In this document: positions 2,106 to 59,893 of the stretch, piece after piece
Position numbering within the stretch: position 1 is the stretch's first letter
How the letters are laid out: every line of letters begins with the position of its first letter
Source of the DNA: Gimesia fumaroli
Lineage (GTDB): Bacteria > Planctomycetota > Planctomycetia > Planctomycetales > Planctomycetaceae
Assembly: GCF_007754425.1 (NCBI RefSeq)
Contig: NZ_CP037452.1
Span: 5,865,164 to 5,929,163 of the forward strand
Length of the DNA stretch: 64,000 bases
Direction: 5' to 3'
Notes under the pieces: model-generated
Told to the model about the DNA's origin: nothing
What the model saw: only the letters and a program-made list of their open reading frames with translations
The model's database searches: none
Program-made: the position numbers and the translations under genes

Positions 2106-2134
2106 TTGACTTAGTGTCTATTAAACACTATCGT
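2106..2134 (+). promoter_or_regulatory. Predicted sigma70 promoter with NrtR-like operator in its spacer
   Basis: TTGACT (2106-2111) and TATCGT (2129-2134) are 17 bases apart. The spacer is filled by a dyad, TAGTGT (2112-2117), seven bases, ACACTA (2125-2130). The same TAGTGT-N7-ACACT(A/T) dyad occurs in the promoters of the Nudix-regulator operon (56232-56250, imperfect second copy 56255-56273) and of pncB (59859-59877). Its position over the core promoter predicts repression. It is 52 bases upstream of the radical-SAM start codon. Confidence 0.7.
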
Positions 2135-2182
2135 TTTCCTGAATCAAGTTGAGGCAAACTTGCCACCAGAACAGGAAAGACC

Positions 2183-3556
2183 ATGCAGACAACCTTGGTA
2201 GAAATTAATCAAAGGGCTTCTCGACACTCGCCTGCCGACCGACTATGCTCGCGGCATCACGTCATCGTTCTCTCCAATTTTGCGCGTGGTTATGACAAGT
2301 ATAGCCACGAATATTCCAAAACGCGGATTCCGGAAAGCAAATTTACGGACAAATTCCATCTGCTGGAACTCGACCAGCTCAATATCGGCATCGAGAAAAA
2401 CAACAGGCTGTTAACCAAGCTGAATCTGCCGGGCAATGCACTACTCATTTTAGAGACACAAGTTGCAGAAAGCCGGCTGTTCAAAACCGAACACACGGGG
2501 CTGGGACACTATATCAAAGGAGATTCCATTCGCGTTCAACGCGTCTACCTGTTCAATCCAGACAGGACGCTGCGCGAAATTTCGATTGAGGAAGCGATGG
2601 CCCGTTCGCTCTCGGTTCTGCAACGAAACTTACCTCAGTATAGCGAACTTACACCCCGCTCCATCTCCCTATTACCAGTTGCCATCGGCTGTCAGGCGAA
2701 ATGTTCGTTCTGTTTTTCCAAATCCTCTGCATCCGTGGAACAGGACAAGGGAACGTTATCACTGGAACAGATCGCGAGGTTGATGCAGGCCGCGAAATCA
2801 CGTGGTACAAAGCGGGCCGTGATCACCGGCGGAGGCGAACCGACGCTTTATCCCCGTTCTAAACTACTGGAATTGATTCGCCTGGCTGCCGACTATTTCC
2901 CGCAAAAAGTCGTGTTGATTACAAACGGTTATCTTCTGACCGAGATGCCCGCGACAGAACGGCTCGTTTTTCTGGAAGAACTTCAGACCGCCGGGCTGAC
3001 TACACTCGCCGTCTCTCACCATCATCATGACCTTGAGGTGAACCGGCGAATTATGAGTCTGGATATTGACGTCGCGCGAATCGCAGAATGCCTTGCTCAG
3101 AATCCGGATCGATTCCCCACACTTTCCCTGCGTCTGATCTGCGTGTTACAGAAAGGGGGCATTCAAGACGAAATCGCCATCCAGAATTATCTTAACTGGG
3201 CTGCATCTCTAAACGTGCGGGAAGTCTGCTTTAAAGAGTTGTATGTTTCCACCAGTGTCGAGTCCGAGTATTACTCCCGGCCTGCCAACGAGTGGAGCGA
3301 AGCACATCAGGTGCCACTCCGAGTTCTCTTGGACTATCTGCAAGCGAAAAACTGGAACCAGGTCGGCCAACTCCCCTGGGGTGCGGCCCTTTATGAACAC
3401 CACATCAATGGTGTCCCGATGAAAGTCGCCGCCTATACCGAACCAAGCCTGCTCTGGGAATTGAGCCAGGGCTTATGTCGTAGCTGGAACATCATGGCCG
3501 ACGGTCGCTGTTTAACCTCACTGGAAGATCGCAGGAGTGAAATCGAGATATCATGA
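2183..3556 (+). CDS. Radical SAM protein with unusual N-terminal extension
   Basis: The product has 457 residues. The radical-SAM cluster motif CxxxCxxC is at Cys170, Cys174 and Cys177, followed by the SAM-binding GGGEPT loop at about 216-221 and a VVLITNGYLL strand, so the core TIM-barrel is intact. A run of four histidines lies near residue 279. The C-terminus (GLCRSWNIMADGRCLTSLED, about 430-449) resembles the tail of MoaA/SPASM-like enzymes and places two extra cysteines (432, 443) that might hold a second cluster. The first about 150 residues are not a family I recognise. The gene overlaps the next one by four bases (ATGA), so the two products are translationally coupled and probably act in one pathway. 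The ATG at 2183 follows an AGGAAAG ribosome site. Substrate unknown; cofactor, peptide or small-molecule modification are all possible. Confidence 0.85.
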   Translation: MQTTLVEINQRASRHSPADRLCSRHHVIVLSNFARGYDKYSHEYSKTRIPESKFTDKFHLLELDQLNIGIEKNNRLLTKLNLPGNALLILETQVAESRLFKTEHTGLGHYIKGDSIRVQRVYLFNPDRTLREISIEEAMARSLSVLQRNLPQYSELTPRSISLLPVAIGCQAKCSFCFSKSSASVEQDKGTLSLEQIARLMQAAKSRGTKRAVITGGGEPTLYPRSKLLELIRLAADYFPQKVVLITNGYLLTEMPATERLVFLEELQTAGLTTLAVSHHHHDLEVNRRIMSLDIDVARIAECLAQNPDRFPTLSLRLICVLQKGGIQDEIAIQNYLNWAASLNVREVCFKELYVSTSVESEYYSRPANEWSEAHQVPLRVLLDYLQAKNWNQVGQLPWGAALYEHHINGVPMKVAAYTEPSLLWELSQGLCRSWNIMADGRCLTSLEDRRSEIEIS

Positions 3557-4521
3557 ATTTTCAGGAATACCGGGCCGCCAAAGAAACGTATCTGAAATCC
3601 GAGCCGCTACGGCTCGACTGTATGAATACACAGAAAGCACTGAGTCATCTTGCTCCCCCGGCAAGCGCAGCGGGAGAAGAAGCTTCACTGCAGGACGCGC
3701 TCTCCGTCTGGCAGGACGTGACTGGATTTAACCTTGATCACCTGCATGCCTTCCCCGGAAAAGGCGTCCGCGATCTGCTCACGCAACTCGTAAAACAGTT
3801 CAAACAGCAACAGGCCTCTTTCATTTTCCCGCAGGATGTCTATCCCGTTTATCATCAGATTTTAGAGGGTTACCCCTGCCGAACATACCGCACCCTGCCC
3901 GAATGGGAATTCGATTATTTAAGGGAATCATCTGAACAACGACAAGTTCTGCTACTGACGCAACCCGCGGTTCCTGTGGGACGTTACCTGAATCCATACG
4001 AAACCACGGCCCTCATCAACTGGTTAACCGCTGACGAAACTCGCACACTGATCATCGATGCCGCGTATGCTTACGAACCCAATCACAGCATTTACTCGCA
4101 ACTCATCCAAACCAGACAATGCATCTGCCTGTTTTCTCTCTCAAAACCCTGGCTGATGCCCGAACAGTGGGGGCTCGCGGTCGGCCCCCAAGAGTTACTC
4201 GGAACGCATTTGCAACCGCGAGCTGACTTCACCTGCAACTGGGTCGAGACCATTCGCCTACACGCTGCACTGCCAACGCAGCTTCGTTCCGCGTTCAGTG
4301 AAGAATGGAAGCGACTGGCTCCCGCGATTCACAACTTCGCCCCTCACTGGCGACCGCCGCAAGCCGGCTATTATTCGACAGTTAACATTCCCTTTACACA
4401 ACTCTTAGAGGAACAGAATGTCCTGGGCGTACCCGCCAGCGTCTTCGGCTCTGACAGGGAAGATGTGACCGTCATTTCATGCCTGTTCGCGATTCAACAA
4501 CGGAGCCTCACGCACATTTGA
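3553..4521 (+). CDS. Divergent fold-type I PLP aminotransferase-like protein
   Basis: This 322-residue protein keeps the skeleton of class I/II aminotransferases: a GKG turn near 69-71, a strand-turn LLLTQPAVPVGRYLN (134-147) at the place of the usual NPxNPTG loop, LIIDAAYAYE (167-175) with Asp169 as the likely PLP pyridine-N ligand and Tyr172, and FSLSKPW (194-200) with Lys198 as the likely Schiff-base lysine. Several usual anchors are altered: NPxNPTG has become QPAVPVG, and the C-terminal Arg that normally binds the substrate alpha-carboxylate is not evident (VTVISCLF). It is also shorter than a normal aminotransferase. This suggests a non-standard substrate or reaction. It overlaps the radical-SAM gene by four bases, so a joint pathway is likely. 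Confidence is high for the fold and low for the reaction. Confidence 0.7.
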   Translation: MNFQEYRAAKETYLKSEPLRLDCMNTQKALSHLAPPASAAGEEASLQDALSVWQDVTGFNLDHLHAFPGKGVRDLLTQLVKQFKQQQASFIFPQDVYPVYHQILEGYPCRTYRTLPEWEFDYLRESSEQRQVLLLTQPAVPVGRYLNPYETTALINWLTADETRTLIIDAAYAYEPNHSIYSQLIQTRQCICLFSLSKPWLMPEQWGLAVGPQELLGTHLQPRADFTCNWVETIRLHAALPTQLRSAFSEEWKRLAPAIHNFAPHWRPPQAGYYSTVNIPFTQLLEEQNVLGVPASVFGSDREDVTVISCLFAIQQRSLTHI

Positions 4522-4627
4522 AAACATCGACTAGCGTCTCTATTTATTGAATTTAGATGCACGCTCGTTGCCCCTTCCTGCTATACTATCTAAATGTACC
4601 CAATTCAGGCAGACGGGGGAGATCACT

Positions 4628-5902
4628 ATGAAATTCTCGCGAATATGCAAATGGTTGCTGATTCCAGTATTAGCCGCCTTTGTGCACTGGGTCGTCATGT
4701 ACTCGGAACACCAGAAGATCGCATTCGCCAAACAACGACTTCGTTCTAAGGGAGTAAATATCACGGAAATCTATCGCTTTAACCCCATCCGCGAGTCAAC
4801 CTTCAAACTGGAATACGTATTTGACACAGAAGAACTCCGGATTTCGCATGTCAATCCTTTTACCTCTCACAGGGCATCTGATTTTATTGAGGACTTAAAA
4901 ATACTGGCACCAGCGATCAGAGGTGTCGAAATCGAAGGCGCCGTCTTCACTGACCAGGATATGCAAGCCTTGCGTCAAATGCCAAATTTACGATACCTCA
5001 GTCTGAACGGTTCTGAATTGACTGAATCGGGAATTGAGGTTTTATCGAGTCTCAAACAACTTGGATCACTTACTATAGATGAGCTTCGGTTAGCAGACAG
5101 CAAGGTCATCTGGTTACAGAACTGCACAGAATTATGGAAACTCAATCTCGCCAAATCTGAACTCAGTCCTGAAACGTACCATCAATTCGCAGCACTGAAA
5201 CAACTTGAGAAGCTTAGTCTGATCAATTCAAACATTAAATCAGATGACCTGCAATCTCTCACGAACCTTCCCCAATTAAGCGAGCTCATTCTTGCAGGCA
5301 CACGGGTGGATGACCAGGCTGCACCTTACCTGAAAAAAATGAAGGCGCTGCACCAGCTGGATCTCAGTAGAACGAATGTCGGAGCCAATGTATGCAACCA
5401 GCTTTCGAACATCAACTTAAAAGAACTCATCCTTGCAAGGACGCAGGTAGACGACCGGGCGGCACCTTACCTCAAGAATCTGAAAACAATACACCGATTG
5501 AATCTCAGCAGAACGAACGTCGGAGATGAAGTATGCCGTCAGGTTTCGAAAATCAACAGTTTGCAACTCTTAAACCTGAAGCAGACTCCCATCACAGACA
5601 GTGGCGTTCAGGCACTTCTTGAGGGATGTCCCAATGTAAGATGGGTGAATCTCGACCGATGTCAAATTTCGAGCAACGCGTTTACTGCATCAAACAAGTG
5701 GCCAGCAAACCTGATTGCCCTTAGTCTCAAAGGGACAAAACTGTCTGAAACAGAGTTTCTGCAAATCTATCGCGATCATGACTCTTTAATCTGGGCTTCG
5801 TTCGACTGGAAAGACTATACAGATCCTGCTTATCAAAAGTTTATCTTAACTGAAAAACCACGTGTCATGCGTGCCAGAAAGAATCAAAAAGAGAACAGCT
5901 GA
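4628..5902 (+). CDS. Membrane-anchored leucine-rich-repeat protein
   Basis: I start at ATG 4628, which follows GGGGGAG and gives a short basic N-terminus plus one membrane segment (WLLIPVLAAFVHWVVMYS); an in-frame upstream start at 4547 has no such support. The 424-residue product carries a run of leucine-rich repeats of the bacterial type L..LxLxxTxVxDxxAPYLxxxKxLxxL (roughly residues 100-360). Two neighbouring repeats are nearly identical (LILAGTRVDDQAAPYLKKMKALHQLDLSRTNVG and its copy about 40 residues later; written here only as a pattern), which points to recent internal duplication. It is probably anchored in the inner membrane with the repeats outside the cytoplasm, for protein binding. 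It is paralogous to the gene at 6290-7417. Confidence 0.85.
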   Translation: MKFSRICKWLLIPVLAAFVHWVVMYSEHQKIAFAKQRLRSKGVNITEIYRFNPIRESTFKLEYVFDTEELRISHVNPFTSHRASDFIEDLKILAPAIRGVEIEGAVFTDQDMQALRQMPNLRYLSLNGSELTESGIEVLSSLKQLGSLTIDELRLADSKVIWLQNCTELWKLNLAKSELSPETYHQFAALKQLEKLSLINSNIKSDDLQSLTNLPQLSELILAGTRVDDQAAPYLKKMKALHQLDLSRTNVGANVCNQLSNINLKELILARTQVDDRAAPYLKNLKTIHRLNLSRTNVGDEVCRQVSKINSLQLLNLKQTPITDSGVQALLEGCPNVRWVNLDRCQISSNAFTASNKWPANLIALSLKGTKLSETEFLQIYRDHDSLIWASFDWKDYTDPAYQKFILTEKPRVMRARKNQKENS

Positions 5903-5952
5903 CTGAAGAGTCAGATCACACGCTCCAGGTTCGTTTTCTGGGGAGCATCTTC

Positions 5953-6267
5953 ATGAATTTCCCGATCCACAAAATTCTGATACAGACCGATTCCGAGAAA
6001 AAAATCGGCGGTTTAGTGCAGGGAGAACTGGCCCACATTCCCCCTGAGATTGAGCAAATAATTTCCGACAGAGATCGATTTGCCTTTCGACTAATTCTGG
6101 AAGAGTTCGTCGTGGGTCTGCTTAAAGAAATGAAGTCAGAACAAAATTTCACACAACGCGGGACCGCCCCCCACTATCAACTGGAAATTATTCTAGATCA
6201 TTCCCGAGGGAAGATCTGTTTTAACGGACACCAGAAAGTAGTTCGCTTCAGTAACATTCGTAACTAA
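5953..6267 (+). CDS. Small protein resembling the start of an RsbW/GHKL-type kinase
   Basis: The product has 104 residues and ATG 5953 follows GGGGAG. The segment RDRFAFRLILEEFVVGLLKEMKS (about 34-56) resembles the N-box helix of RsbW-type anti-sigma kinases (pattern RFAxRLALEEAxxNAIKHG), but the catalytic Asn-x-x-x-His is lost. No later ATP-binding boxes (DxGxG, GxGL) follow, although a typical family member has about 140 residues. I read it as a degenerate or repurposed GHKL-fold protein, without evidence of kinase activity. It lies between two LRR paralogues on the same strand (50 bases after the first, 22 before the second), so it is probably co-transcribed with them. Confidence 0.55.
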   Translation: MNFPIHKILIQTDSEKKIGGLVQGELAHIPPEIEQIISDRDRFAFRLILEEFVVGLLKEMKSEQNFTQRGTAPHYQLEIILDHSRGKICFNGHQKVVRFSNIRN

Positions 6268-6289
6268 TCATCGAATATGAAAGTGCCTC

Positions 6290-7417
6290 GTGAATTTGAA
6301 ACGAAGACGCTTCAATAAATGGTTTCTGTTTCTGGCAATTCTGCTCTGCGGAGGGGGAGCTGCACTCTACTTCAAAGAAGATTCGATTTCGCTCGCGAAA
6401 GAACGACTCACGGCCAAAGGATTTTCTATCAGACCGGCTACCCGGTCTGATCTCATAGATGATTCATTACTGAGTCTCAAAAGTTATTTAAAAATGGAAG
6501 AAATCCGAGTTTCCCAGACTGAATGGTACAAAGAAAAGGAAATACTGGAAGTCACCGCGGAACTCAACGCATTAGCTCCGTTTATTGAATACTTAAGTTG
6601 TGGATTGACAAAAGTTCGAGACCGTGATGCACTTGTCATCGGCAAAATGCATTCATTAAGACATTTACAAATTTATGGGCCAGACTTAACAGATAAGGGA
6701 GTTTCAGCGCTATCCGACCTGAAGGATCTCGAACGGCTTGAGCTGTATGCACCACAGGCCACCGACGAAGGACTGAACTGGCTTCACCGTTGTACTCAAC
6801 TGTCCTGGCTCTTTCTGTCAGACGCCAAACTGGGAACGAGTACCCTCCAGCAGTTTGCCAACCACCAAGAGCTGTTTCGAATCGACATACAAGGCACAAA
6901 TGTGAAATCTACTGACCTGCAATATCTGACCCAACTTCCGCGGTTACATATGCTGGAATTGAATGGTACCTTTCTGGATGAGGAAGCAGCTCCATATTTA
7001 CGTCAGATGAAATCTTTGGGCACATTGTATCTCAACGAAACGGAAGTGGGCGATCAGGTCTGCCAGGCGCTGGCATCGCTTCCCAAATTAAATTCACTGA
7101 TGCTTAATGATACTCAGATTACCGATCAAGGCGTGCAGACTCTGCTCGCAGGTTGTCCTGAATTGAAAAGGCTTTCAATTCGAAACTGTCATATTTCAGG
7201 TAAAGCATTTTTTGCTGTGAAATTCTGGCCGGTCAAGCTGGAAAGCCTGGATGTAACAGGCACGAATTTAACCGGCGAGGAGATGCTAATACTGCTGAAG
7301 GATCATGAAACCCTTGAATCAATCTACATGACTCCCAAAGACTGTGATCCAGAAATAGCCAAACAGATCCATTCAATCAGAGAAGCAAGGCATCATCGGA
7401 GTCTGTATGGCCGATAA
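6290..7417 (+). CDS. Membrane-anchored leucine-rich-repeat protein, paralogue
   Basis: The 375-residue product starts at GTG 6290 (a TTG two codons later is possible; the ribosome site is weak). It has a basic N-terminus and one membrane segment (WFLFLAILLCGGGAALYF), then the same design as the 4628-5902 product: a short linker with AKERLTAKGFSIRP, matching AKQRLRSKGVNITE in the paralogue, and a row of leucine-rich repeats ending in ITDQGVQTLLAGCPELKRLSIRNCHISGKAF. The two genes clearly arose by duplication, with the small GHKL-like gene between them. Role unknown; probably an extracytoplasmic protein-binding domain. The 3' end overlaps a tiny ORF by 11 bases. Confidence 0.85.
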   Translation: MNLKRRRFNKWFLFLAILLCGGGAALYFKEDSISLAKERLTAKGFSIRPATRSDLIDDSLLSLKSYLKMEEIRVSQTEWYKEKEILEVTAELNALAPFIEYLSCGLTKVRDRDALVIGKMHSLRHLQIYGPDLTDKGVSALSDLKDLERLELYAPQATDEGLNWLHRCTQLSWLFLSDAKLGTSTLQQFANHQELFRIDIQGTNVKSTDLQYLTQLPRLHMLELNGTFLDEEAAPYLRQMKSLGTLYLNETEVGDQVCQALASLPKLNSLMLNDTQITDQGVQTLLAGCPELKRLSIRNCHISGKAFFAVKFWPVKLESLDVTGTNLTGEEMLILLKDHETLESIYMTPKDCDPEIAKQIHSIREARHHRSLYGR

Positions 7418-7526
7418 ACAGCAGAACACGACGCATCAATCACAAACTGGCGCAGAGAATCCCAAGTGGAAAAACTGTGGAAACGTTCTAGTGGTGATCC
7501 TGATTTTGATCGTTCTCTCTCCTTAG
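7407..7526 (+). CDS. Possible 39-residue single-pass membrane peptide
   Basis: ATG 7407 opens a 39-codon frame overlapping the last 11 bases of the LRR gene. The first 28 residues are polar (MADKQQNTTHQSQTGAENPK...), then GNVLVVILILIVLSP forms a convincing C-terminal membrane segment. The overlap would allow translational coupling to the LRR gene. No family is recognised, and a hydrophobic run in a short frame can arise by chance. Confidence 0.4.
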   Translation: MADKQQNTTHQSQTGAENPKWKNCGNVLVVILILIVLSP

Positions 7527-7643
7527 TTTTACGGCTAACTGACAGCAAATGCGGCAAACGCTCAACAGGTTTCGCTCGCAATTCGCCACTAAAATCGGCT
7601 AACGCAAACTGACAGTCAATTACAGGCTTCCCGACAGACTCTA

Positions 7644-9920: not shown

Positions 9921-10247
9921 GGTGATTCATTCAGACATAAAACTTAGTTGGCGGGTTGAGAGCAAAATCAGTCTAACGAATTGATTTCCTGAAGAGAAAT
10001 AAACTTGCTCAGATATAGTGTAAAAACGTTTCAACCGTTTTTTAGCGTAATCAACAGGCTTCGTCTATACTTTTGCTTCCTTATTATACGCAGTAACCTC
10101 TTTTTACAAATGGCATTTACCTCATTCTGAGATTTTCAGACTCCTATCTGATTTTTCCTCTTTAAAAACAAATTTGTGCGCTATAACAACAATAGGGAGA
10201 AGTAGTTCTCTCTGATCTGCATTCCTGTTTTCAAGGTCCCCAGAGCA
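9921..10247. other. Intergenic region between divergent genes
   Basis: This 327-base AT-rich stretch must hold the promoters of the SulP fusion (leftwards) and of the PQQ-propeller gene (rightwards). I see no convincing small gene, RNA or strong dyad. A TAGTGT half-site at 10016-10021 has no matching second arm. Confidence 0.5.
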
Positions 10248-11507: not shown

Positions 11508-11534
11508 ATTCAAATCAACGAACGATCCAACACC

Positions 11535-43538: not shown

Positions 43539-43543
43539 TTTTA

Positions 43544-49074: not shown

Positions 49075-49090
49075 TCGAAGTGGACACGAC

Positions 49091-50422: not shown

Positions 50423-50880
50423 GAGCCGGCCCACCGCCGGTTCACCAAATGCTTGAACAGCATTACCCAGAAAACCGGACGAAGACAGATGTTTCACGGT
50501 CGGCTTTGTGTGATGAACTGTTTCTGAATCGCTTACGACTCAGATCAGAAACATTGCCCGAAGCAGCACGTGGCGACGCCTTGCAGTACGTGGATACCGT
50601 GTTCGTGCTTCCATTTTGAAAGCACATCGAATCAATGTGCGTTTCCGATTGGAATCCTGCAGGAGACCAGGACGAAGCACAACAGCGTGACGGTGTGTAG
50701 ACGCTATGGAAGACGTTCACTCAAGCGGACTCCGCGATGCGCTCGTGTGATCGGCGAACATTCTGTCTTCGAAAGGTGTCTTTATCGAACTGTCCGCGGT
50801 ACTGAAACCGCTTTTTATGTATGTGCTCCTCAACCGAGAGGAGCGGAAAGGTCCAGGGATTATCCCTGAGGAGGTATGAG
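50423..50880. promoter_or_regulatory. Leader region of slipin gene with two hairpins
   Basis: No credible gene lies in this stretch. Just before the slipin start there are two stem-loops: GCTCCTC (50825-50831) with GAGGAGC (50838-50844), and CAGGGA (50854-50859) with TCCCTG (50863-50868). The second ends directly at the ribosome site AGGAGG (50869-50874), and the left arm of the first, GCTCCTC, is complementary to that site, so alternative pairing could hide it. Confidence 0.5.
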
Positions 50881-51987: not shown

Positions 51988-52011
51988 AATGTCAGATGGC
52001 ATCATCTGCTC

Positions 52012-52045
52012 CCCGGGGTTCGAGAAATCGACCCCGGGATTTTTT
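52012..52045 (+). terminator. Intrinsic terminator of slipin gene
   Basis: CCCGGGGTTCGA and TCGACCCCGGG pair with a single bulged base and a GAAA-type loop, followed by ATTTTTT. It begins 25 bases after the slipin stop. Confidence 0.92.
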
Positions 52046-52063
52046 CATTCAACGGAACGGATT

Positions 52064-52540
52064 TCAATCTTCCTCTTTGATAGAAATCCGGCTTTTCACA
52101 AATGCGGCCAGATTCTCCGCGTCGTCAGTGCCAACGCGCAAGGTTCCCTTGCGAAGTTTGAGTACAACACAGTCGCGCCCCCAGAGATTCCAGACCCAGC
52201 CGCCACGAAAACTGAGATGAATGCCCCAGCCATCCAAAATCGTCGTGCGGCCGACTTCGGCACTCTGAATGTCTTCATACAAAACGGACCGCTGAAAGAG
52301 TGGCAGTGGACCAAAGCGAATCCGCAGCCGATCGATTTCATCGGCCACCGTCAAATGATGGAAACCGGTCGCTACGACGCTCAGCAGCAGTCCGATGCCG
52401 AAGAAATAGAGACACAGATAGGGTCGAGGCGGCTCGTTCCGCGTGAACCATGCTGCCAGATACAGCAGCCCCGCGGCCGCATAGATAAACAGACAGAGCG
52501 GCCCCCGCTGCGTGTGATAATAAATGGCAAGACTATTCAT
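52064..52540 (-). CDS. Two-TM protein with PH-like C-terminal domain
   Basis: The 158-residue product has two membrane segments (about 14-31, LCLFIYAAAGLLYLAAWF, and 41-60, YLCLYFFGIGLLLSVVATGF). The soluble part HLTVADEIDRLRIRFGPLPLFQRSVLYEDIQSAEVGRTT, GIHLSFRGGWVWNLWGRDCVVLKLRKGTLRVGTDDAENLAAFVKSR matches the strand pattern of bacterial PH-like (YdbT/DUF304-related) domains. Function unknown. It is convergent with the slipin gene. Confidence 0.7.
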   Translation of the reverse strand: MNSLAIYYHTQRGPLCLFIYAAAGLLYLAAWFTRNEPPRPYLCLYFFGIGLLLSVVATGFHHLTVADEIDRLRIRFGPLPLFQRSVLYEDIQSAEVGRTTILDGWGIHLSFRGGWVWNLWGRDCVVLKLRKGTLRVGTDDAENLAAFVKSRISIKEED

Positions 52541-52807
52541 CGTTCTTGCTCCTATAGCCTGGATGCCCTCTGAAAATACTCAATCACACCTCGACCTCTT
52601 CTATTACTTTAACGCATTTCTGCGCATTTCGGATAGGGAACTTTTCTATGATGTTGAGCTTGACTGTTCACTCTGATACCGTCATCAAAGTATCGCTAAA
52701 TAGAGGCATGCCATGAACCATGACAAAATGCTGCGTGTCACCTTTCGAGTCTATCTTCTAAACTTTTTCACTTTTTTATGTCATGTCAACGGAGCAAGCC
52801 GACCACC

Positions 52808-53266
52808 ATGTCAGAACCAGCCCATGTCATCAATTTTTACAGCGTGACGGAACCGTACGGGGAGTTCTCCAATTTTGCCGGGTACCCGATTCAGTTAGAT
52901 GGAAAATGCTGGCCGACCTCGGAGCATTATTTTCAGGCGATGAAATTTCAGGATGCGGCACACCAGGAAGACATTCGTCAAGAGAAATCGCCGATGCGGG
53001 CCGCGCGGATGGGCCGCGACCGGAAACGCCCGATCAGAAAAGACTGGGAGTCGGTCAAAGACTCCATCATGCGGAAGGCCGTTGTCTGCAAATTCACTCA
53101 ACACGATGATCTTCGTGAACTGTTGCTTTCCACAGGCGAGGCGAAGCTGGTGGAGCATACGACGAATGATGCTTACTGGGGAGATGGGGGAGACGGGAGC
53201 GGCAAGAACATGCTGGGGCGGATACTGGTAGAAGTCCGGGAACAACTTCGGCTGGAGAGCCAGTGA
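52808..53266 (+). CDS. NADAR-family protein (YbiA-like N-glycosidase fold)
   Basis: The 152-residue domain is complete: VINFYSVTEPYGEFSNFAGYPIQLDGKCWPTSEHYFQAMKF, AARMGRDRKRPIRKDWESVKDSIMRKAVVCKFTQ and KNMLGRILVEVREQL. NADAR proteins were named for their links with NAD and ADP-ribose chemistry; characterised members cleave N-glycosidic bonds in riboflavin precursors or remove ADP-ribose from guanine in DNA or RNA. I start at ATG 52808 by family alignment; ATG 52778 would add ten residues. It converges with kptA with a seven-base gap and borders the NAD/ADP-ribose operon. Confidence 0.9.
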   Translation: MSEPAHVINFYSVTEPYGEFSNFAGYPIQLDGKCWPTSEHYFQAMKFQDAAHQEDIRQEKSPMRAARMGRDRKRPIRKDWESVKDSIMRKAVVCKFTQHDDLRELLLSTGEAKLVEHTTNDAYWGDGGDGSGKNMLGRILVEVREQLRLESQ

Positions 53267-53273
53267 TCCCCGC

Positions 53274-53819
53274 TCAGGGAAAATCAATATATGCCGCCGG
53301 CACACTTTCTGTCAGCCAGACCTGATTGGGCGTCACAAAAAATTCACAGCCCGCCTCATGCATTTCGAGTGACCGGACACTGAGTAAGACCGGCGTCCCA
53401 CGCCTGCGCCCCACGGTAAGGCTGGTCTGCTCATCTACATGCAGGTGCACATGATGCCGCTGCATTTTCTTGAGCCCTTCACGCGCGATCGAATCCACGA
53501 ACTGTCGAGGTGTACCGTGAAACAAGATTTCTGGAGGGACCGCGGCTTCATACCCCAGATCGATATTGATCGAATGCCCCTGATTCGCACGGATGCGAGT
53601 CCCCGTTTCATCAAAAGAAAACCGCTGTTTGTCGTTCGTTCGAACCACCATTTCCAAAGTGTTCCGAGACATTGATTTACCATGTCGCGCCATGGAGGCT
53701 AACAGTTCTTCGACATCAATCCAGCCCGATTCATCCAGGCTGATTCCAATCGTTTCCGGCTGATGCCGGAGCACCAGACTCAGAAACTTGCTTTTTCTTC
53801 GTACTTCTTTTTCGTTCAT
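53274..53819 (-). CDS. kptA: RNA 2'-phosphotransferase (KptA/Tpt1)
   Basis: The 181-residue product transfers an internal RNA 2'-phosphate to NAD+, giving ADP-ribose 1''-2'' cyclic phosphate and nicotinamide. The N-terminal winged helix (KSKFLSLVLRHQPETIGISLDESGWIDVEELL) carries the conserved Arg-His, and the ADP-ribosyltransferase fold has ILFHGTPRQFVDSIAREGLKKMQRHHVHLH and VGRRRGTPVLLSV. Both products feed the neighbouring activities (nicotinamide to PncA). It is the last gene of the Nudix-ADPRH-pncA-kptA operon, 44 bases after pncA. Confidence 0.95.
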   Translation of the reverse strand: MNEKEVRRKSKFLSLVLRHQPETIGISLDESGWIDVEELLASMARHGKSMSRNTLEMVVRTNDKQRFSFDETGTRIRANQGHSINIDLGYEAAVPPEILFHGTPRQFVDSIAREGLKKMQRHHVHLHVDEQTSLTVGRRRGTPVLLSVRSLEMHEAGCEFFVTPNQVWLTESVPAAYIDFP

Positions 53820-53863
53820 TTTTTTAACTCTTTTCTTTCTTACTTTTCGATTTTTTTCTTGTA

Positions 53864-54460
53864 TTAGATATGTGTGACACCGGCAGCCTGCATTTCATCA
53901 CAGGCGCGCTGCACGTCACCCGGGTTTAAATTCACTCCCCGGCACCCTTCCCGGATCAGACTGGTTTTCAAACCGAGCTTGATCGCATCGAGGGCCGTAT
54001 ATTTGACGCAGTAATCTGTAGCCAGCCCCATGATCACAACTTCATTGACGGCGCGTTGTTTTAAATACTCCGCCAGTCCCGTGGAATGCTGATGACAGTT
54101 ATTAAAAAAGCCGCTATAGCTGTCGATATTAGTATCTGTGCCTTTATGCAAGACACGCGTAATACGATCCGTGTGCAGATCAGCGTGAAGTTCCGCGCCC
54201 GGTGTTCCCTGCACACAGTGATCGGGCCATAAAACCTGCTCCAGGCCTCTTAACTCAATCACGTCACCAATCTGTTTGTGATCATGCTGACTGGCAAAAC
54301 TCTTGTGATTTTCCGGATGCCAGTCCTGCGTCGCAATAACAAGCTCAAAACGGTGCATCCACTCATTGGCAACGGAAATGACTTGATCTCCCTGGGAAAC
54401 AGCAAGTGGCCCTCCCGGCAGGAAATCATATTGCAGGTCAACCAGGATTAATGCTTTCAT
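53864..54460 (-). CDS. pncA: Nicotinamidase
   Basis: The 198-residue isochorismatase-fold enzyme hydrolyses nicotinamide to nicotinate and ammonia. LILVDLQYDFLPGG has the catalytic Asp8, VLHKGTD the catalytic Lys, and GLATDYCVKYTALDA the nucleophilic Cys; TQDWHPENHKSFA supplies the metal-binding Asp and two His. The product is the substrate of PncB, encoded a few kilobases upstream on the same strand. It begins 16 bases after the ADP-ribosylglycohydrolase gene, in one operon. Confidence 0.96.
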   Translation of the reverse strand: MKALILVDLQYDFLPGGPLAVSQGDQVISVANEWMHRFELVIATQDWHPENHKSFASQHDHKQIGDVIELRGLEQVLWPDHCVQGTPGAELHADLHTDRITRVLHKGTDTNIDSYSGFFNNCHQHSTGLAEYLKQRAVNEVVIMGLATDYCVKYTALDAIKLGLKTSLIREGCRGVNLNPGDVQRACDEMQAAGVTHI

Positions 54461-54476
54461 CGTTCTATTGTTCTAT

Positions 54477-55529
54477 TCAATAAGGTGGCAACAGGCGACG
54501 AAACCCAAGCGTTAACACTACGGAAGCAAACATTAGATTTCGCGGTATTGTTGCCAGCCAGTACATGGAAGGTGGTTTCAAAGCTTCTGTTGAAAGTGAT
54601 CCTTCCGACAGACTCGTTGCCAACAATTCCATCCACGCAGTAGTACGAGGCCACTCCATCAGGCGTTCTTTCCATTCAACGGGAATGGCATCGGCTCCCA
54701 GATTTGCACCACTGACCGCACCGGTAATCGCAGCCACACTGTCAGTATCGCCTCCAAGCATCACGGCATTTTCCACCGACCGTCGAAAATCATCGGGTGA
54801 ATAAGCCCAGCAATACAAGGCAGCCGGAACCGTTTGATTCACGTAACCACTGATCCCTCTTCCCCAGCCTGCAGCCTCCGCATAACGCTCGGGTGATGCT
54901 CCTACTGAGAGATGTTGGATCGCACTTCGGAGCGAATTTTGTAACTCTTCGTTTTGCACTGTCGAAACAGTGGACTGCAAAAACTCGAGTGGATTACAAG
55001 CGGCTCCCTGAATTGTCTGTCGCGCTGCTTGTGCAATCAGCAGTGCACCTGCTTCTGCTCTTGAATCCACATGAGTCATGCGTGTGCTGGAATAGACCAG
55101 CTTGGACAGATGCTCCTCGTCTTCAGCACACACTCCTAATATCGCAGACCTCATTGCCGGTCCGTTCCCGGCACTATTCACGCCACTTCGTTGCGGATGA
55201 AATCCAACCAGCAGCTTAAGACAGGCCCTCAGTGTCGCAAAACCAACGCCTGCCGGCACACACAGGAACCAGCGTTTCAATTCTCGTGCAAACTGTTTTT
55301 CAAATTGAGTGACATCGCCCCGGGAAATTACCACAGCACGCCCCACCATGAGAGTATGTTCGGTATCATCGCTACACAAACCCCGTCCCCAGATCAGATT
55401 CTGTTTCAGGGGAGGTCCGCCGTAAAGTCGACGGGCCCGTTGTTTTGATAATCCTTCCCGCTTCAATCCCACAGAGTCAGCGACTGCTGTACCAAGAATA
55501 CATCCCAATATATTTGAATAACGTTCCAT
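54477..55529 (-). CDS. ADP-ribosylglycohydrolase (DraG/ARH-type)
   Basis: I start at ATG 55529, one base after the Nudix-gene stop; longer forms would overlap that gene. The 350-residue product has the ARH helical fold with its metal motifs: ILGCILGTAVADSVGLKREGL, CSDDTEHTLMVGRAV (DDT) and AVMLGGDTDSVAAITGAVSGANLGADAIP (GGDTDS). It removes ADP-ribose from a protein or nucleic-acid substrate, or hydrolyses a related compound, and so yields free ADP-ribose, the effector of NrtR regulators and a Nudix substrate. The C-terminal 30 residues are unusually hydrophobic. Confidence 0.9.
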   Translation of the reverse strand: MERYSNILGCILGTAVADSVGLKREGLSKQRARRLYGGPPLKQNLIWGRGLCSDDTEHTLMVGRAVVISRGDVTQFEKQFARELKRWFLCVPAGVGFATLRACLKLLVGFHPQRSGVNSAGNGPAMRSAILGVCAEDEEHLSKLVYSSTRMTHVDSRAEAGALLIAQAARQTIQGAACNPLEFLQSTVSTVQNEELQNSLRSAIQHLSVGASPERYAEAAGWGRGISGYVNQTVPAALYCWAYSPDDFRRSVENAVMLGGDTDSVAAITGAVSGANLGADAIPVEWKERLMEWPRTTAWMELLATSLSEGSLSTEALKPPSMYWLATIPRNLMFASVVLTLGFRRLLPPY

Positions 55530-55530
55530 G

Positions 55531-56220
55531 TCAGATCTCGAAGTGAAATCCCTGTTTGGTGAGACGCCGATATTTGCGGCGATCAAATTTATAAAGTCGT
55601 GCCGCGCGATGGGCGACGTCTGTTTCGACTTCATCCAGTTCGACAAGAATTCCCATGTTGAGAATTTTCTTGCGGAAATTGCGTTTATCCAGCTGACGAT
55701 CCAGAATGACCTCGTACAAATGCTGAATCTGACGCAGCGTGAACTTGGCAGGCAGCAGTTCAAATCCAATTGGCTGATAGCGAACCTTGCCTCGCAAACG
55801 CTCATGCGCCATCTTCAAGATTTTCGGGTGATCAAATGCGAGCGAGGGCACATCCTCAATGGCAAACCAGGCCGCGTTTCGAGCATCGGTGGCAGCATGC
55901 ACGCGGTGATCGGCAAGGTTCACTAAAGCATAATAGGCCACCGTTACTACGCGTTCGCGCGGATCGCGGTCGACCTCGCCGATCGTGTAGAGTTGCTCGA
56001 GGTAGACATTTTCGATGCCGGTTTCTTCGCTTAATTCACGGCGGGCCGCTTCTTCAAGCGTTTCTTCCAGACGGACAAAACCGCCAGGCAACGCCCAGCA
56101 ACCTTCAAACGGCTCCAGATCACGCTGAATCAGCAAGACTTTCAAATCTTCCTCATCCAGCCCAAATACTACGCAGTCAACCGTGAGCGCCGCTCGGGGA
56201 TATTCGTAATGATAATTCAT
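55531..56220 (-). CDS. nrtR: NrtR-like Nudix regulator of NAD metabolism
   Basis: I start at ATG 56220; TTG 56226 is less likely. The 229-residue product has an N-terminal Nudix domain ([39 protein letters not shown], then a Nudix box with intact G-x5-E-x7-REL-x-EE-x-G-I pattern) and a C-terminal winged-helix part ([35 protein letters not shown]), the NrtR layout. NrtR represses NAD genes and is released by ADP-ribose. Because the Nudix box is intact, it may also hydrolyse ADP-ribose. It heads an operon with ADP-ribosylglycohydrolase, pncA and kptA, and two operator-like dyads lie just upstream, so it is probably autoregulated. A pure ADP-ribose pyrophosphatase is the alternative. Confidence 0.88.
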
Positions 56221-56231
56221 TCTCAAACCTT

Positions 56232-56279
56232 TAGTGTATACAACACACTAATATTAGTGTCTATACAACACCTTGACAA
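56232..56279 (-). promoter_or_regulatory. nrtR: Promoter of the Nudix-regulator operon with two NrtR-like operators
   Basis: Read leftwards, TTGTCA (56279-56274) and TAATAT (56256-56251) are 17 bases apart. Site 1, TAGTGT-N7-ACACTA (56232-56250), lies just after the -10 and site 2, TAGTGT-N7-ACACCT (56255-56273), fills the spacer. Between them ACACTAATATTAGTGT (56245-56260) is itself a perfect palindrome. The start codon is 12 bases beyond site 1. Confidence 0.75.
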
Positions 56280-56300
56280 TCAAAAAACAAACAGGTTCAC

Positions 56301-56333
56301 AAAAAAACTGAGACCGGTCAAAAAATGTGACCG
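56301..56333 (-). terminator. Terminator of pncB-nadE operon
   Basis: CGGTCA (56315-56320) and TGACCG (56328-56333) form a short stem; read leftwards it is followed by a run of seven T (56307-56301). It separates nadE from the operators of the Nudix-regulator operon. Confidence 0.6.
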
Positions 56334-56336
56334 AAA

Positions 56337-58319
56337 TTATAACAGATCCCGCATTTCGCTTAACTCCTGCTCGAAACCGCCAGAGAGAATCGGAAAGCGG
56401 CACCAGGTTTTCGGGTCTAGATTCTCATCGTCCACATGAAACGAAGGCGCATAACGTTCTCGTTTCCATTGATTGCGTGACCAGAGTCGGAAGAAACGTT
56501 CAATCCAATCCTCCAACTGTGCGGGTGCGTATTCTGGAAATTCTACCCGCGCCATACGAAACAGATCCACGGGCGCCTGCTTGTCACGAATAGCGGCTCG
56601 CTCGACCCAATCCAGCAGATCGTAGGGCATCAAATCTTGTTCGTCTGTCTGGCCCGCGTTCTGCGGGCGTAATTCCGCCGTCGGTTCCTGAAGATTGATC
56701 AAATCGAGCACCGGTAGATTTCCTGTTTCCCGCGGCCCGGTCTCACACATCCAGTTCAGCCAGCGACGTAAAAATGCTTTATCGATTCCTGAAATCGGCG
56801 AGAGTCCGCCGCAGGTATCGCCGTCCATCGTCGTATAGCCTACCGCCGCCTCTGATCGATTGCTGGTTGCCAATAGCAGTGAGTCCCGCACATTCGCAAC
56901 CAACCACACACCGGGGGCACGGACGCGCGCCTGGATATTCTGGAGAGCGATATCATCCTCGTCCCAGTTGAGATCTCGACCGACCGCTTCCGACACAATG
57001 TCGGTGTACGCTTCCACAATCGAATCTACATCCAGCCTGAGATACTCCGCCCCCAGTGCCTCGGCAAGTGAAGCAGCCGCCTGCTCGGTTGTCTCAGAAC
57101 TGTTTCGCGTGGCCTGATACATGCACGTCAGCAGTCTGGGCAAGATCTGTTCGGCTGTCTTTAGCTCCGCCAATCTTTCGATATAAGCCAGTTTGGAGAG
57201 AAATTTTTCTGTCCCTAATTCATCCAGCCCCAGTTTCAGCAGCAGCCAGACCAGAACGGCGGCAGCAGCCGAATCCGCACCACCACTGAGAGAAATCACG
57301 AAACCTTTCGCACGGCTTTTTCGCAAGTAATCAAACAGCGCCAGAGCAATCGTGCGGGCAAACTCTTCTTCTTTGACAGCGGGCCCGTGTTCCCACATGG
57401 GAATTTTATTCTGGACCGTCTCAGGTTCGATGTCCGGAAATGAAAATAAAACGGCCACACGATTCGCTGTTAGATGAGCTTGCTGTGGTTGAAAACTCAT
57501 CAGCCGGGCGCGGTTCATGCGTGTCAGATCAACGTCAACAATGGCAGTGGTGAGCACAACATCGGCAAAGGACAACCGGCGTCCTTCTGCCAACAACTTT
57601 CCACTACTGGCAATCAGCGCGGCGCCATCGTAAATAATGCGTCCCGCCTCATTGCCGAGCAGGTTCGTATAGACATAAGTCACGCCATATGCCCTGGAGC
57701 TTTCAAGCACCAGCCGACGACGAATCTCCTGTTTACCAAAGGCAAAATGACTGGCACTCGGATTCAAAATCAGATCCACGGCTGCCTGCGATAAGGCGTG
57801 CGCGGGTCGATGTGAGGCCCAGGCGTCTTCGCAGATTTCAAATCCGATCCGTACCCCCTTGCAATCAAAGATCAGATTCCCAATCGGATAGGAACGACCT
57901 TGAATTTCAATTTCGCTCACCTGGCGGGCATCCCAAGGCTTAAACCAGCGGGGTTCATAATGAATTCCTTCACCGGCAAGCTGATTTTTAGCAACAAAGC
58001 CCAAAATCTGTTGATCGGCGATCAGGCAGGCACAATTATAAAGAGCTCCGCCGTGAAATAGAGGAAGGCCCAGTGATACTACAAGCCCTTCGGTCAAAGG
58101 GACCAGATCCAATAATACCTGTAGCGCCCTTTGCTGAACGCCCACTGAGAGAAACGCATCCTCACATCCATAACCAGTGATACACAATTCGGGCAAGCAG
58201 ATCAGGCTGGCTCCCTGATCGCGGGCAGCGGCGATCGCGGATTGAATATGGGTGACGTTGCCTTCCCAGTCCAGCGGGGTCTGATTGAGAGCGGCGGTTG
58301 TGACTTTGATGAGTTGCAT
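56337..58319 (-). CDS. nadE: Glutamine-dependent NAD+ synthetase
   Basis: The 660-residue enzyme amidates nicotinate adenine dinucleotide to NAD+. The N-terminal nitrilase-type glutaminase has the triad Glu (LICLPELCITGYG), Lys (FVAKNQLAGEG) and Cys (IGFEICEDAW); the C-terminal synthetase has the pyrophosphate loop ISLSGGADSAAAAVLV and AVGYTTMDGDTCGGLSPI. It lies 44 bases after pncB, so the two final salvage steps are co-transcribed under the operator at 59859. Confidence 0.96.
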   Translation of the reverse strand: MQLIKVTTAALNQTPLDWEGNVTHIQSAIAAARDQGASLICLPELCITGYGCEDAFLSVGVQQRALQVLLDLVPLTEGLVVSLGLPLFHGGALYNCACLIADQQILGFVAKNQLAGEGIHYEPRWFKPWDARQVSEIEIQGRSYPIGNLIFDCKGVRIGFEICEDAWASHRPAHALSQAAVDLILNPSASHFAFGKQEIRRRLVLESSRAYGVTYVYTNLLGNEAGRIIYDGAALIASSGKLLAEGRRLSFADVVLTTAIVDVDLTRMNRARLMSFQPQQAHLTANRVAVLFSFPDIEPETVQNKIPMWEHGPAVKEEEFARTIALALFDYLRKSRAKGFVISLSGGADSAAAAVLVWLLLKLGLDELGTEKFLSKLAYIERLAELKTAEQILPRLLTCMYQATRNSSETTEQAAASLAEALGAEYLRLDVDSIVEAYTDIVSEAVGRDLNWDEDDIALQNIQARVRAPGVWLVANVRDSLLLATSNRSEAAVGYTTMDGDTCGGLSPISGIDKAFLRRWLNWMCETGPRETGNLPVLDLINLQEPTAELRPQNAGQTDEQDLMPYDLLDWVERAAIRDKQAPVDLFRMARVEFPEYAPAQLEDWIERFFRLWSRNQWKRERYAPSFHVDDENLDPKTWCRFPILSGGFEQELSEMRDLL

Positions 58320-58363
58320 CGTCGTGTCAATTCATTTTCAGCAGTTGAATAATCATTGTTGTC

Positions 58364-59836
58364 TCATAATGGAATCTGTGTGCCACGCGCCCGATGAATC
58401 CATTCTGTCTTCAATTCGTGGAGTTGCTCTTCCAAGCCGACAGGATAAGCTTGAGGATTCTCATGCCGCCGCACTCCCACATGAAACAAAGCAAGCTGCT
58501 GCTCAACCCGCTCCCGGATTATTGACAGTGATTCGTGCCGATAGACAATGTCTCCATTGCGAACAACGGGAACCAGCAGATTCACGGCTTTCAGATCACC
58601 CCCCAAAGGACGTCGCTGTGTCGGGTCCAGTAGATCCACCATGACCACCGTGTCCAGCCTGGCATTGAACTCATTATACATCACATCGGCAACAGCACCT
58701 GATTCATTCTGGAACCGTCGAACCTGCAGCATACCGGGCGTTGAGGTTTTAATGGCCTGCTCCGATAATTTCAGTTTCGGCTCCCATTCCCCCGCTTCAT
58801 TTTTTACTGCACCCAACTTATAGACGCCTCCCAGTGCAGGCTGGTCATACGCGGTCACCAGTCTCGTGCCAACGCCCCAGACGGCAATCGTCGCCCCTTG
58901 TGATTTCAGACTGGTGATGACTGCTTCATCCAGATCGTTACTCGCAACAATCGCGACATTGGTCAGTCCGGCTTCATCTAACAACTGACGTGCTTCGATG
59001 CTCAATTGAGCCAGATCGCCGGAATCAAGGCGTATGCCCACCATTTCGTGGCCCGTTTCCCGCAGTCTCAGCCCGACTTGGATCGCATTTCGCACACCAT
59101 CCAGCGTGTCGTAGGTATCGACGAGGAACACACAATTATTCGGCATCGCGTGAGCATACTCTTCAAATGCAGAGAGTTCATCATCGAATGACATCACCCA
59201 GCTGTGAGCGTGGGTCCCTCTAACGGGGATCTCAAACAGCTTTCCCGCCAACACATTGGAAGTGGCCGCACAACCGCCAATGTACGCGGCACGGCTGGCC
59301 GCTAAGCCGCCATCTATTCCCTGGGCACGCCGGAGACCAAACTCCAGCACAGGATCGCCCCCCGTCGCTGCACAAATCCGTGCGGATTTGGTGGCAATCA
59401 ACGTCTGAAAATTCACGAGATTCAACAATGCCGTCTCCAGAAGCTGACACTGCAGGATCGGACCTTTCACACGCACCAGAGGCTCATGCGGAAAGACAAC
59501 CGTTCCTTCCGGCACGGCATCCAGATCACAGCTAAATTTCAGTTCCGACAGATAGGTCAAAAACTCTGTGGCAAACAGCGGCTCACCATCGTTTCCTTTC
59601 AGCTCTGAAAGATATTCAATATCCTCAGCGGTGAACCGAAAGTGCTTCAGATAGTCGAGCACATATTCCAGCCCCGCAGCAATTGTGTAGCCCCCTTGAA
59701 ACGGGTTGCTCCGAAAGAATAAATGAAAGACCGCTTCCCGCTCGGACCGCCCTGACTTCCAATAGCCTTGCGACATCGTCAGCTGATAGAGGTCTGTCAG
59801 GAGCGCTAAAGAGGTTTCATAGATGTTTGTAAGCAT
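58364..59836 (-). CDS. pncB: Nicotinate phosphoribosyltransferase
   Basis: I start at ATG 59836, preceded by GGGGAG. The 490-residue enzyme converts nicotinate and PRPP to nicotinate mononucleotide. Recognisable parts are [51 protein letters not shown] at the N-terminus, [56 protein letters not shown] and [14 protein letters not shown]. It uses the nicotinate made by PncA and passes its product, after adenylylation (enzyme not in the window), to NadE in the same operon. Confidence 0.96.
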
Positions 59837-59858
59837 TATTGTTTCTCCCCGGAACACT

Positions 59859-59893
59859 TAGTGTATCATATACACTTTCGTATATCAGATCAA
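59859..59893 (-). promoter_or_regulatory. pncB: pncB promoter with NrtR-like operator
   Basis: Read leftwards, TTGATC (59893-59888) and TATGAT (59870-59865) are 17 bases apart. TAGTGT-N7-ACACTT (59859-59877) covers the -10; its inner part AGTGTAT-CAT-ATACACT is a perfect dyad. The pncB ATG is 22 bases further on. No gene is seen in the remaining bases up to rmlA at 60056. Confidence 0.75.

What the first reader, a model, noticed from the sequence alone, without database searches (positions are those of the whole stretch)
2106..59877. A shared TAGTGT-N7-ACACT(A/T) operator links a radical-SAM/PLP operon to NAD metabolism
The dyad occurs at 2112-2130, 56232-56250, 56255-56273 (second arm imperfect) and 59859-59877. 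Each copy overlies or directly abuts a predicted sigma70 promoter. Two promoters drive NAD/ADP-ribose genes next to an NrtR-like regulator gene; the third drives an uncharacterised radical-SAM/aminotransferase-like pair more than 50 kb away. The simplest reading is one NrtR-type regulon that includes a new NAD-linked or ADP-ribose-responsive pathway. Operator positions are seen directly; regulator identity and the NAD link are inference.
Basis: partly seen in the sequence, partly recalled or inferred. Interest (0 to 1): 0.85.

Follow-up and report, generated by a model that had tools for sequence, protein, structure and literature searches.

The report
NrtR operator on a radical-SAM operon
In this bacterium the same DNA switch sits in front of NAD-recycling genes, of the gene for an NrtR-type repressor, and of an uncharacterised pair of enzyme genes far away, which suggests that the cell's NAD or ADP-ribose state controls a small pathway whose chemistry is still unknown.

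Summary
The dyad is real and the NrtR reading holds at the level of regulation. Perfect TAGTGT-N7-ACACTA occurs twice in the 7.7-Mb genome, both in the window. In 17 genus genomes, 27 of 28 exact matches (ACACTW end) lie before four genes: pncB (11), nrtR (3), the radical-SAM gene (6), an uncharacterised 401-aa gene (7). A backwards-read control pattern is about as frequent, so position, not number, is the evidence. All six radical-SAM orthologues keep the dyad: arms and an abutting TTGACT are invariant (18 of 18 columns) against 9 of 154 flanking columns. The five genomes without detectable NrtR have no perfect copy. In four other genera exact or near-exact dyads precede nrtR, and the 401-aa gene lies inside that operon. 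The radical-SAM/PLP pair, often with a methyltransferase gene, also occurs in 33 of 394 genomes of Kitasatospora's family; none of 25 non-genus copies examined has the dyad, so its chemistry need not concern NAD. Shown: conserved operator and promoter layout. Inferred: NrtR binding, ADP-ribose release. Unknown: substrate and product.

The parts
2106..2134 (+). sigma70-like promoter TTGACT-17-TATCGT of the radical-SAM operon; operator fills the spacer and 2 bases of the -10
   Evidence: TTGACT abutting the operator is invariant in 6 of 6 orthologous promoters
2112..2130 (.). operator TAGTGT-N7-ACACTA, perfect palindrome, 52 bp before the radical-SAM ATG
   Evidence: conserved in 6 of 6 orthologues
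2183..3556 (+). radical-SAM enzyme, 457 aa, CX3CX2C at residues 170-177, MoaA/viperin-like core
3553..4521 (+). small PLP enzyme resembling HisC/GabR, 322 aa, presumed Schiff-base lysine K198; start overlaps the radical-SAM stop
   Evidence: found beside the radical-SAM gene in 30 of 30 loci
52778..53266 (+). NADAR-domain protein (no dyad within 2 mismatches in front)
53274..53819 (-). Tpt1/KptA RNA 2'-phosphotransferase
53864..54460 (-). nicotinamidase PncA
54477..55529 (-). ADP-ribosylglycohydrolase (ARH)
55531..56226 (-). NrtR-type regulator: Nudix domain with intact Nudix box + NrtR winged helix; likely ATG start at 56220 (read from the sequence)
56232..56250 (.). operator, perfect palindrome, 11 bp before the likely nrtR ATG
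56255..56273 (.). second, imperfect operator in tandem, 23 bp from the first (start to start)
   Evidence: tandem copies 22-23 bp apart also before nrtR in G294, G181, G719, G064, G077, G079 and before the 401-aa gene in 7 of 7 genomes
56251..56279 (-). sigma70-like promoter of nrtR
56314..56334 (-). terminator-like hairpin between nadE and nrtR
   Evidence: 1 found, 0.4 expected in shuffles
56337..58319 (-). NAD synthetase NadE with N-terminal carbon-nitrogen hydrolase domain
58364..59857 (-). nicotinate phosphoribosyltransferase PncB; likely ATG start at 59836 (read from the sequence)
59859..59877 (.). operator before pncB, one mismatch to the full palindrome
   Evidence: a dyad within one mismatch precedes pncB in 11 of 11 NrtR-bearing genus genomes with a readable pncB start
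59865..59893 (-). sigma70-like promoter of pncB

Best explanation
The dyad is the operator of the NrtR-type repressor encoded at 55531-56226. An NrtR dimer bound to TAGTGT-N7-ACACTA lies between or on the -35 and -10 boxes and blocks transcription; rising ADP-ribose (the effector of studied NAD-type NrtRs) would release it. The regulon in this genus is pncB-nadE, nrtR-(ARH)-pncA-tpt1, the radical-SAM/PLP(/methyltransferase) operon and, in seven relatives, a 401-aa gene that lies in the NrtR operon of other genera. The radical-SAM/PLP pair is a cassette of wider distribution that has come under NrtR control in this genus. Shown: operator, promoter layout, conservation, specificity of position. 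Inferred: binding by this NrtR, repression, ADP-ribose release. Unknown: substrate and product of the enzyme pair.
For: Regulator domains. Exact matches: 27 of 28 in 17 genus genomes at four genes, the 28th inside an ORF of NrtR-less G303. Perfect palindromes: 24 in 11 of the 12 NrtR-bearing genomes, all at these genes; 0 in the 5 without detectable NrtR. Footprint before the radical-SAM gene: arms 12 of 12 and TTGACT 6 of 6 columns invariant in six genomes, N7 1 of 7, other columns 9 of 154, including G048, where the operon has different upstream neighbours. The 401-aa gene keeps the dyad in 7 of 7. Dyads with 0-2 mismatches in tandem before nrtR in G719, G064, G077, G079, and perfect ones before pncB in G719 and G064; G064 NrtR is 87% identical. 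N7 palindrome as in MsNrtR, GTTTTCGA-N7-TCGAAAAC (PMC6800001, passages seen). ADP-ribose as effector of two studied NrtRs: PMC4666351 (passages seen).
Against: No binding or expression data. A backwards-read control pattern is about as frequent (25 exact forward matches against 27 in the 17 genomes); where those control matches lie was not examined. In 8 of the 12 NrtR-bearing genomes no dyad within 2 mismatches lies in the nadE-nrtR gap, so autoregulation from an own promoter is not general. The regulator misses the NCBIfam cut-off for the ADP-ribose-responsive repressor (186.9 of 400 bits). Of four NrtR-bearing family members outside the genus, G707 has no dyad within 2 mismatches near nrtR and G706 one with 2. 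The six radical-SAM proteins form one clade, so the conserved copies are not independent events. G300 has NrtR but no exact match (fragmented genome).
Confidence: 0.86

Rival explanations
1. Regulatory capture of an unrelated small-molecule cassette: NrtR controls the operon, but the enzymes make a compound whose chemistry does not involve NAD or ADP-ribose. A radical-SAM step on a nucleotide, nucleoside, sugar or amino acid, then a PLP step, then N-methylation, as in desosamine-type (recalled) or daptide-type logic.
For: The pair (30 of 30 loci), with a methyltransferase in 15 of 30, is shared with genomes of Kitasatospora's family, two Embleya plasmids and Pleionea; besides ORFs overlapping these three genes, no ORF family is shared by more than 7 other loci; no dyad before any of the 25 non-genus copies examined (best 4 mismatches). 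The methyltransferase's best curated match is the daptide N-methyltransferase, below cut-off (102.4 of 175 bits). Structural neighbours include MoaA, viperin, BlsE and DesII.
Against: The operator is kept in 6 of 6 copies in this genus, so expression seems to matter in a particular NAD or ADP-ribose state. The chemistry is read from resemblance only.
Confidence: 0.5
2. The operon is under NrtR control but decaying in the window's own lineage: the window genome and its nearest relative found, G294, lack the methyltransferase gene, and G294 has lost a cluster cysteine.
For: No methyltransferase after the PLP gene in the window and G294, present in G181, G238, G302, G048. G294 has Tyr for the first CX3CX2C cysteine; 31 of 32 homologues have Cys.
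Against: Window reading frames and motif are intact; 14 of the 29 loci besides the window also lack the methyltransferase; the operator is intact in both.
Confidence: 0.2
3. The dyad belongs to another regulator that acts at the same promoters, and NrtR recognises something else.
For: No binding test was possible; two NrtR-bearing relatives outside the genus (G706, G707) have only a weak dyad or none next to nrtR.
Against: Within the genus perfect dyads occur in NrtR-bearing genomes only, and exact or near-exact dyads precede nrtR in this genus and four others.
Confidence: 0.07
4. Chance: a 12-base dyad noticed in a 64-kb window.
For: Permissive count in the window only mildly unusual (2 of 100 shuffles); a backwards-read control pattern is about as frequent in the genus.
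Against: Conserved in all six orthologous promoters against a diverged background; 27 of 28 exact matches at four genes.
Confidence: 0.01

Closest known systems
NrtR regulons of NAD metabolism (Nudix-related transcriptional regulators; MsNrtR, SoNrtR)
   Same: Nudix + winged-helix regulator, palindromic operator with N7 centre, NAD salvage/synthesis targets, own gene in the regulon
   Different: Arm sequence TAGTGT, against GTTTTCGA in Mycobacterium (PMC6800001, passages); Nudix box intact in 17 of 19 proteins examined, whereas PMC4666351 (passages) calls it impaired in NrtR regulators of NAD metabolism; targets include a radical-SAM/PLP operon. No held paper contains both 'NrtR' and 'radical SAM'.
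ARG-centred ADP-ribose-reversal systems with a Nudix transcription factor (PMC9503650, section 3.8 read)
   Same: ADP-ribosylglycohydrolase next to a Nudix-HTH regulator, with NADAR nearby (and, in L152, a protein that looks like a macro domain by eye); the paper names planctomycetes among the carriers
   Different: Here joined to pncB, nadE, pncA and Tpt1, i.e. NAD salvage; the linked phosphatases and chaperones of the paper were not searched for; radical SAM does not occur in its text
MoaA and viperin (radical-SAM enzymes acting on GTP and on CTP)
   Same: Radical-SAM core and C-terminal half: best Foldseek hit MoaA (E 3.9e-11), viperins close behind
   Different: Far below the curated cut-offs (56.0 of 284.05 and 41.9 of 180 bits); an N-terminal region of about 150 residues without a Pfam match; 13-21% identity to the listed structures around these hits
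Desosamine or blasticidin type radical-SAM + PLP + N-methyltransferase logic (DesII, BlsE; logic recalled)
   Same: Order of enzyme types in the operon of G181, G238, G302, G048, Pleionea and Kitasatospora; DesII and BlsE among structural neighbours
   Different: PLP enzyme is small and HisC/GabR-like; no sugar or nucleoside biosynthesis gene noticed in the operon

Membership tests
NrtR family (Nudix-related transcriptional regulators) | N-terminal Nudix-like domain and C-terminal NrtR winged helix | tested here: met
   PF00293 1.2e-20 (15-137) and PF21906 2.3e-28 (154-214), both above the curated cut-off; best solved relatives 5bs6 (AraR) and 3gz5 (deposited as MutT/nudix; SoNrtR by recall)
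NrtR family (Nudix-related transcriptional regulators) | palindromic operator at its own or NAD genes | tested here: met
   dyad within one mismatch at pncB in 11 of 11 readable genus genomes and at nrtR in 4 of 12; also in other genera. That NrtR binds it is inferred.
NrtR family (Nudix-related transcriptional regulators) | DNA binding relieved by ADP-ribose or another NAD metabolite | not testable with these tools
   needs purified protein
NCBIfam NF050029 ADPR-responsive repressor equivalog | score above the curated cut-off of 400 bits | tested here: not met
   186.9 bits; so not filed under this equivalog, only under the wider family
ARG-centred Nudix-regulator systems (PMC9503650) | ADP-ribosylglycohydrolase gene coupled to a Nudix-HTH regulator | tested here: met
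   54477-55529 and 55531-56226 adjacent; ARH directly follows nrtR in 7 of the 12 NrtR-bearing genus genomes (G000, G048, G181, G238, G296, G297, G302), no ARH match there in the other 5
ARG-centred Nudix-regulator systems (PMC9503650) | linked phosphatase or peptide chaperone (in part of those systems) | not tested
   no search made for them
MoaA (GTP 3',8-cyclase) | score above the equivalog cut-off | tested here: not met
   56.0 of 284.05 bits (TIGR02666)
Viperin / prokaryotic viperin | score above the equivalog cut-off | tested here: not met
   41.9 of 180 bits (NF038283); PADLOC pVip 39.9 bits over residues 170-255 only
Radical SAM superfamily | CX3CX2C motif and Radical_SAM domain | tested here: met
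   PF04055 1.5e-16, above cut-off; motif in 31 of 32 homologues
Fold-type-I PLP enzymes (aminotransferase class I/II-like) | sequence similarity with the presumed PLP lysine and aspartate | tested here: met
   profile matches GabR and HisC chains (best 2.1e-07); K198 and D169 invariant in 7 of 7 aligned. Against: Pfam PF00155 just under its cut-off (18.4 of 19.7 bits), all NCBIfam matches far under theirs, structure model too poor to use (pLDDT 54.4)

The most novel reading that the evidence does not exclude
The radical-SAM/PLP(/methyltransferase) operon makes a modified nucleotide or amino-nucleoside that is switched on when ADP-ribose rises (NAD breakdown, ADP-ribosylating toxins or phages), as the biosynthetic arm of an NrtR-run programme that also rebuilds NAD (PncA, PncB, NadE) and strips ADP-ribose from molecules (ARH, Tpt1, NADAR and, in relatives, a macro-domain-like protein). 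It would be functionally akin to viperin but made by a new enzyme family.
Probability: 0.13. Interest if true: 0.88.

Novelty: new variant of a known kind. Interest (0 to 1): 0.58.

Why it matters
It gives a conserved, testable handle on an orphan enzyme pair that also occurs in 33 of 394 sampled genomes of Kitasatospora's family and in Pleionea: in one genus the cell itself seems to say when the product is needed, namely when NrtR lets go. It would extend NrtR from NAD housekeeping to a programme with ADP-ribose removal and an unknown biosynthetic arm, and it ties a second orphan, a 401-aa protein with weak Band7/vault resemblance, to ADP-ribose biology.

Tried and rejected
Chance and random placement: disfavoured by position and conservation, not by number, since the backwards-read control is about as frequent. 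Extra regulon members at one mismatch: recurring copies outside the four genes (for example TAGTGTGTT[TG]GGGACACAA) occur in genomes with and without NrtR alike, so I did not count them as operators; I did not examine their genes. A larger gene cluster around the radical-SAM pair: besides ORFs overlapping radical-SAM, PLP and methyltransferase genes, no ORF family is shared by more than 7 other loci of the 30. Operator outside the genus: none in 25 loci. Vault or SPFH identity of the 401-aa protein: one weak match each among 10 members (Band_7 0.005, Vault_3 0.025), no convincing solved relative; a lead only. A weak Lokiarchaeota match (32%, L043) was not followed. PLP structure model too poor to search. 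The radical-SAM model has its cluster loop (169-189) at low confidence, and its N-terminal 150 residues were hardly tested by the fold search. The founding NrtR regulon paper (doi 10.1093/nar/gkn047) is not held, so whether it lists planctomycete sites is unknown to me. Paper searches: NrtR + planctomycet + regulon and NrtR + Rhodopirellula found one paper each (PMC6593275, PMC2963123; listing only); radical SAM + PLP-dependent + methyltransferase + Streptomyces + Planctomycetes none; a looser search two reviews (listing only); vault + NADAR none; PMC11833690 and PMC11125620 hold no mention of NrtR or SPFH in their text (passages seen).


Full report
Observation. The four dyads are at the stated coordinates. 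Two are perfect TAGTGT-N7-ACACTA palindromes (2112-2130, 56232-56250), one has one mismatch (59859-59877) and one two (56255-56273). In the window alone the permissive count is only mildly unusual (9 strand-matches, shuffles 3.77, sd 2.10, 2 of 100 reach 9). In the whole 7.7-Mb genome there are two perfect places, both in this window, two places with one mismatch (59859 is one) and 62 with two. Base composition alone would give 0.45, 16.3 and 270. A control, the pattern read backwards, is no rarer: over the 17 genus genomes it has 25 exact forward matches against 27 for the dyad, and 31 against 4 within one mismatch in the window's own genome. Number alone therefore proves nothing; position and conservation carry the case. 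Where the control matches lie could not be examined.

Promoters. Consensus scans put a sigma70-like match at each copy. At the radical-SAM promoter TTGACT directly abuts the operator, which fills the 17-bp spacer and 2 bases of the -10. At nrtR the imperfect copy lies in the same register and the perfect copy follows the -10 directly, 23 bp from the first. At pncB the operator covers the -10. These are positions where a bound protein would block transcription (inference). A terminator-like hairpin separates nadE from nrtR.

Genes. Minus strand: pncB (58364-59857), nadE (56337-58319), then nrtR (55531-56226), an ADP-ribosylglycohydrolase, pncA and Tpt1; a NADAR gene on the plus strand. The regulator has a Nudix domain and the NrtR winged helix, each above its Pfam cut-off; its best solved relatives are 5bs6 (AraR) and 3gz5 (SoNrtR by recall). 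It does not reach the cut-off of the NCBIfam ADP-ribose-responsive equivalog (186.9 of 400 bits). Its Nudix box GX5EX7REUXEEXGU is intact, as in 17 of 19 NrtR-type proteins examined, 12 of the genus and 7 of other genera; PMC4666351 (passages seen) states that the box is impaired in NrtR regulators of NAD metabolism.

Conservation and specificity. No call names the organism; from gene content I take it for a planctomycete, probably Gimesia (recalled). In 17 genomes of the genus the radical-SAM gene is present in 6, NrtR in 12, the 401-aa gene in 7 (not in the window's genome). An exact-match scan (TAGTGT-N7-ACACTW) finds 28 places. Mapping them: 11 before pncB, 3 before nrtR, 6 before the radical-SAM gene, 7 before the 401-aa gene; the 28th is inside an ORF of G303, which has no detectable NrtR. 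G300, a fragmented genome, has NrtR but no exact match. Counting perfect palindromes only, 24 places occur in 11 of the 12 NrtR-bearing genomes and none in the 5 others (one of the five, G301, is only 74% complete). All 6 radical-SAM copies and all 7 copies of the 401-aa gene have the dyad. Around the radical-SAM operator all 12 arm columns and all 6 columns of TTGACT are invariant in six genomes, against 1 of 7 centre columns and 9 of 154 other columns; with the near-duplicates G302 and G294 left out it is 12, 6, 2 of 7 and 9 of 154. In G048 the operon has different upstream neighbours and still has the operator. The six proteins form one clade, so this is selection keeping a site, not six independent gains. 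At nrtR itself only 4 of the 12 genomes have a dyad within 2 mismatches.

Other genera. NrtR at E up to 1e-20 is found in 6 of 81 genomes of the family, four of them outside the genus, and the 401-aa gene in 8 of 294 genomes of the phylum, six outside the genus. In G719 (found by NrtR) and in three of those six (G064, G077, G079) the 401-aa gene lies on the strand of nrtR and near it, with pncA and, variously, ARH, Tpt1, a NADAR match, and NudF-like and macro-domain-like genes (the last two by eye). Dyads stand in tandem, 22-23 bp apart, before nrtR in all four (mismatches: G719 1 and 0, G064 1 and 0, G077 2 and 1, G079 0 and 2), and perfect ones precede pncB in G719 and G064; the pncB start lies outside the fetched stretch in the other two. 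The other three (G051, G071, G089) have no match to the NAD genes in the 9 to 12 kb fetched. Of the remaining family members with NrtR, G745 has two one-mismatch copies before nrtR, G706 one two-mismatch copy, G707 none. In G295 of the genus the 401-aa gene is followed directly by a second NADAR gene. My reading: the dyad is an old NrtR operator of this phylum, and this genus has it in front of new genes.

Mechanism. Shown: a conserved operator in the promoter spacer, shared with NAD salvage and NrtR genes, with the regulator gene present in the genus wherever perfect copies are. Inferred from studied NrtRs: dimer binding, repression, release by ADP-ribose (PMC4666351, passages). N7-spaced palindromes are also found for MsNrtR (GTTTTCGA-N7-TCGAAAAC; PMC6800001, passages). 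Open: what the operon makes. Enzyme order radical-SAM, PLP, methyltransferase (best curated match daptide methyltransferase, 102.4 of 175 bits; daptide route seen in passages of PMC10036551) fits oxidation or rearrangement, transamination and N-methylation of a small molecule. Resemblance to nucleotide-acting radical-SAM enzymes makes a nucleotide substrate attractive, no more.

Known kind. NrtR regulons and ARG-centred Nudix-regulated ADP-ribose systems are known (PMC9503650 section 3.8 read). No held paper contains both NrtR and radical SAM; the founding regulon paper is not held.

Noticed in passing
L068, L069, L070, L071, L072, L073, L074; L148, L152, L153, L154: An uncharacterised 401-aa protein (weak Band_7/Vault_3 matches, coiled C-terminal half by eye) has the NrtR dyad in 7 of 7 genus genomes that carry it and sits with nrtR in four other genera; the window genome lacks it.
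   Followed up: partly
L070:5398-5856: In G295 a second NADAR gene directly follows the 401-aa gene under the NrtR dyad.
   Followed up: partly
L063:6225-7595: The radical-SAM protein of the nearest relative found, G294, has Tyr in place of the first cluster cysteine, so it is probably inactive there, while operator and PLP gene are intact.
   Followed up: partly
55531-56226 and 18 relatives: The Nudix box of this NrtR group is intact in 17 of 19 proteins, so the regulator may also hydrolyse ADP-ribose.
   Followed up: partly
4547-5902: A leucine-rich-repeat-like gene (by eye) follows the PLP gene where G181, G238, G302 and G048 have the methyltransferase gene of the operon.
   Followed up: partly
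L078:1327-1868: The Tpt1 match of G181 comes in two overlapping pieces in different frames, which suggests a frameshift there.
   Followed up: no
L158 (G065): A distant radical-SAM relative (30-35% identity over residues 160-452 of the query) in another genome of the phylum seems to start at the radical-SAM core, without the N-terminal region.
   Followed up: no
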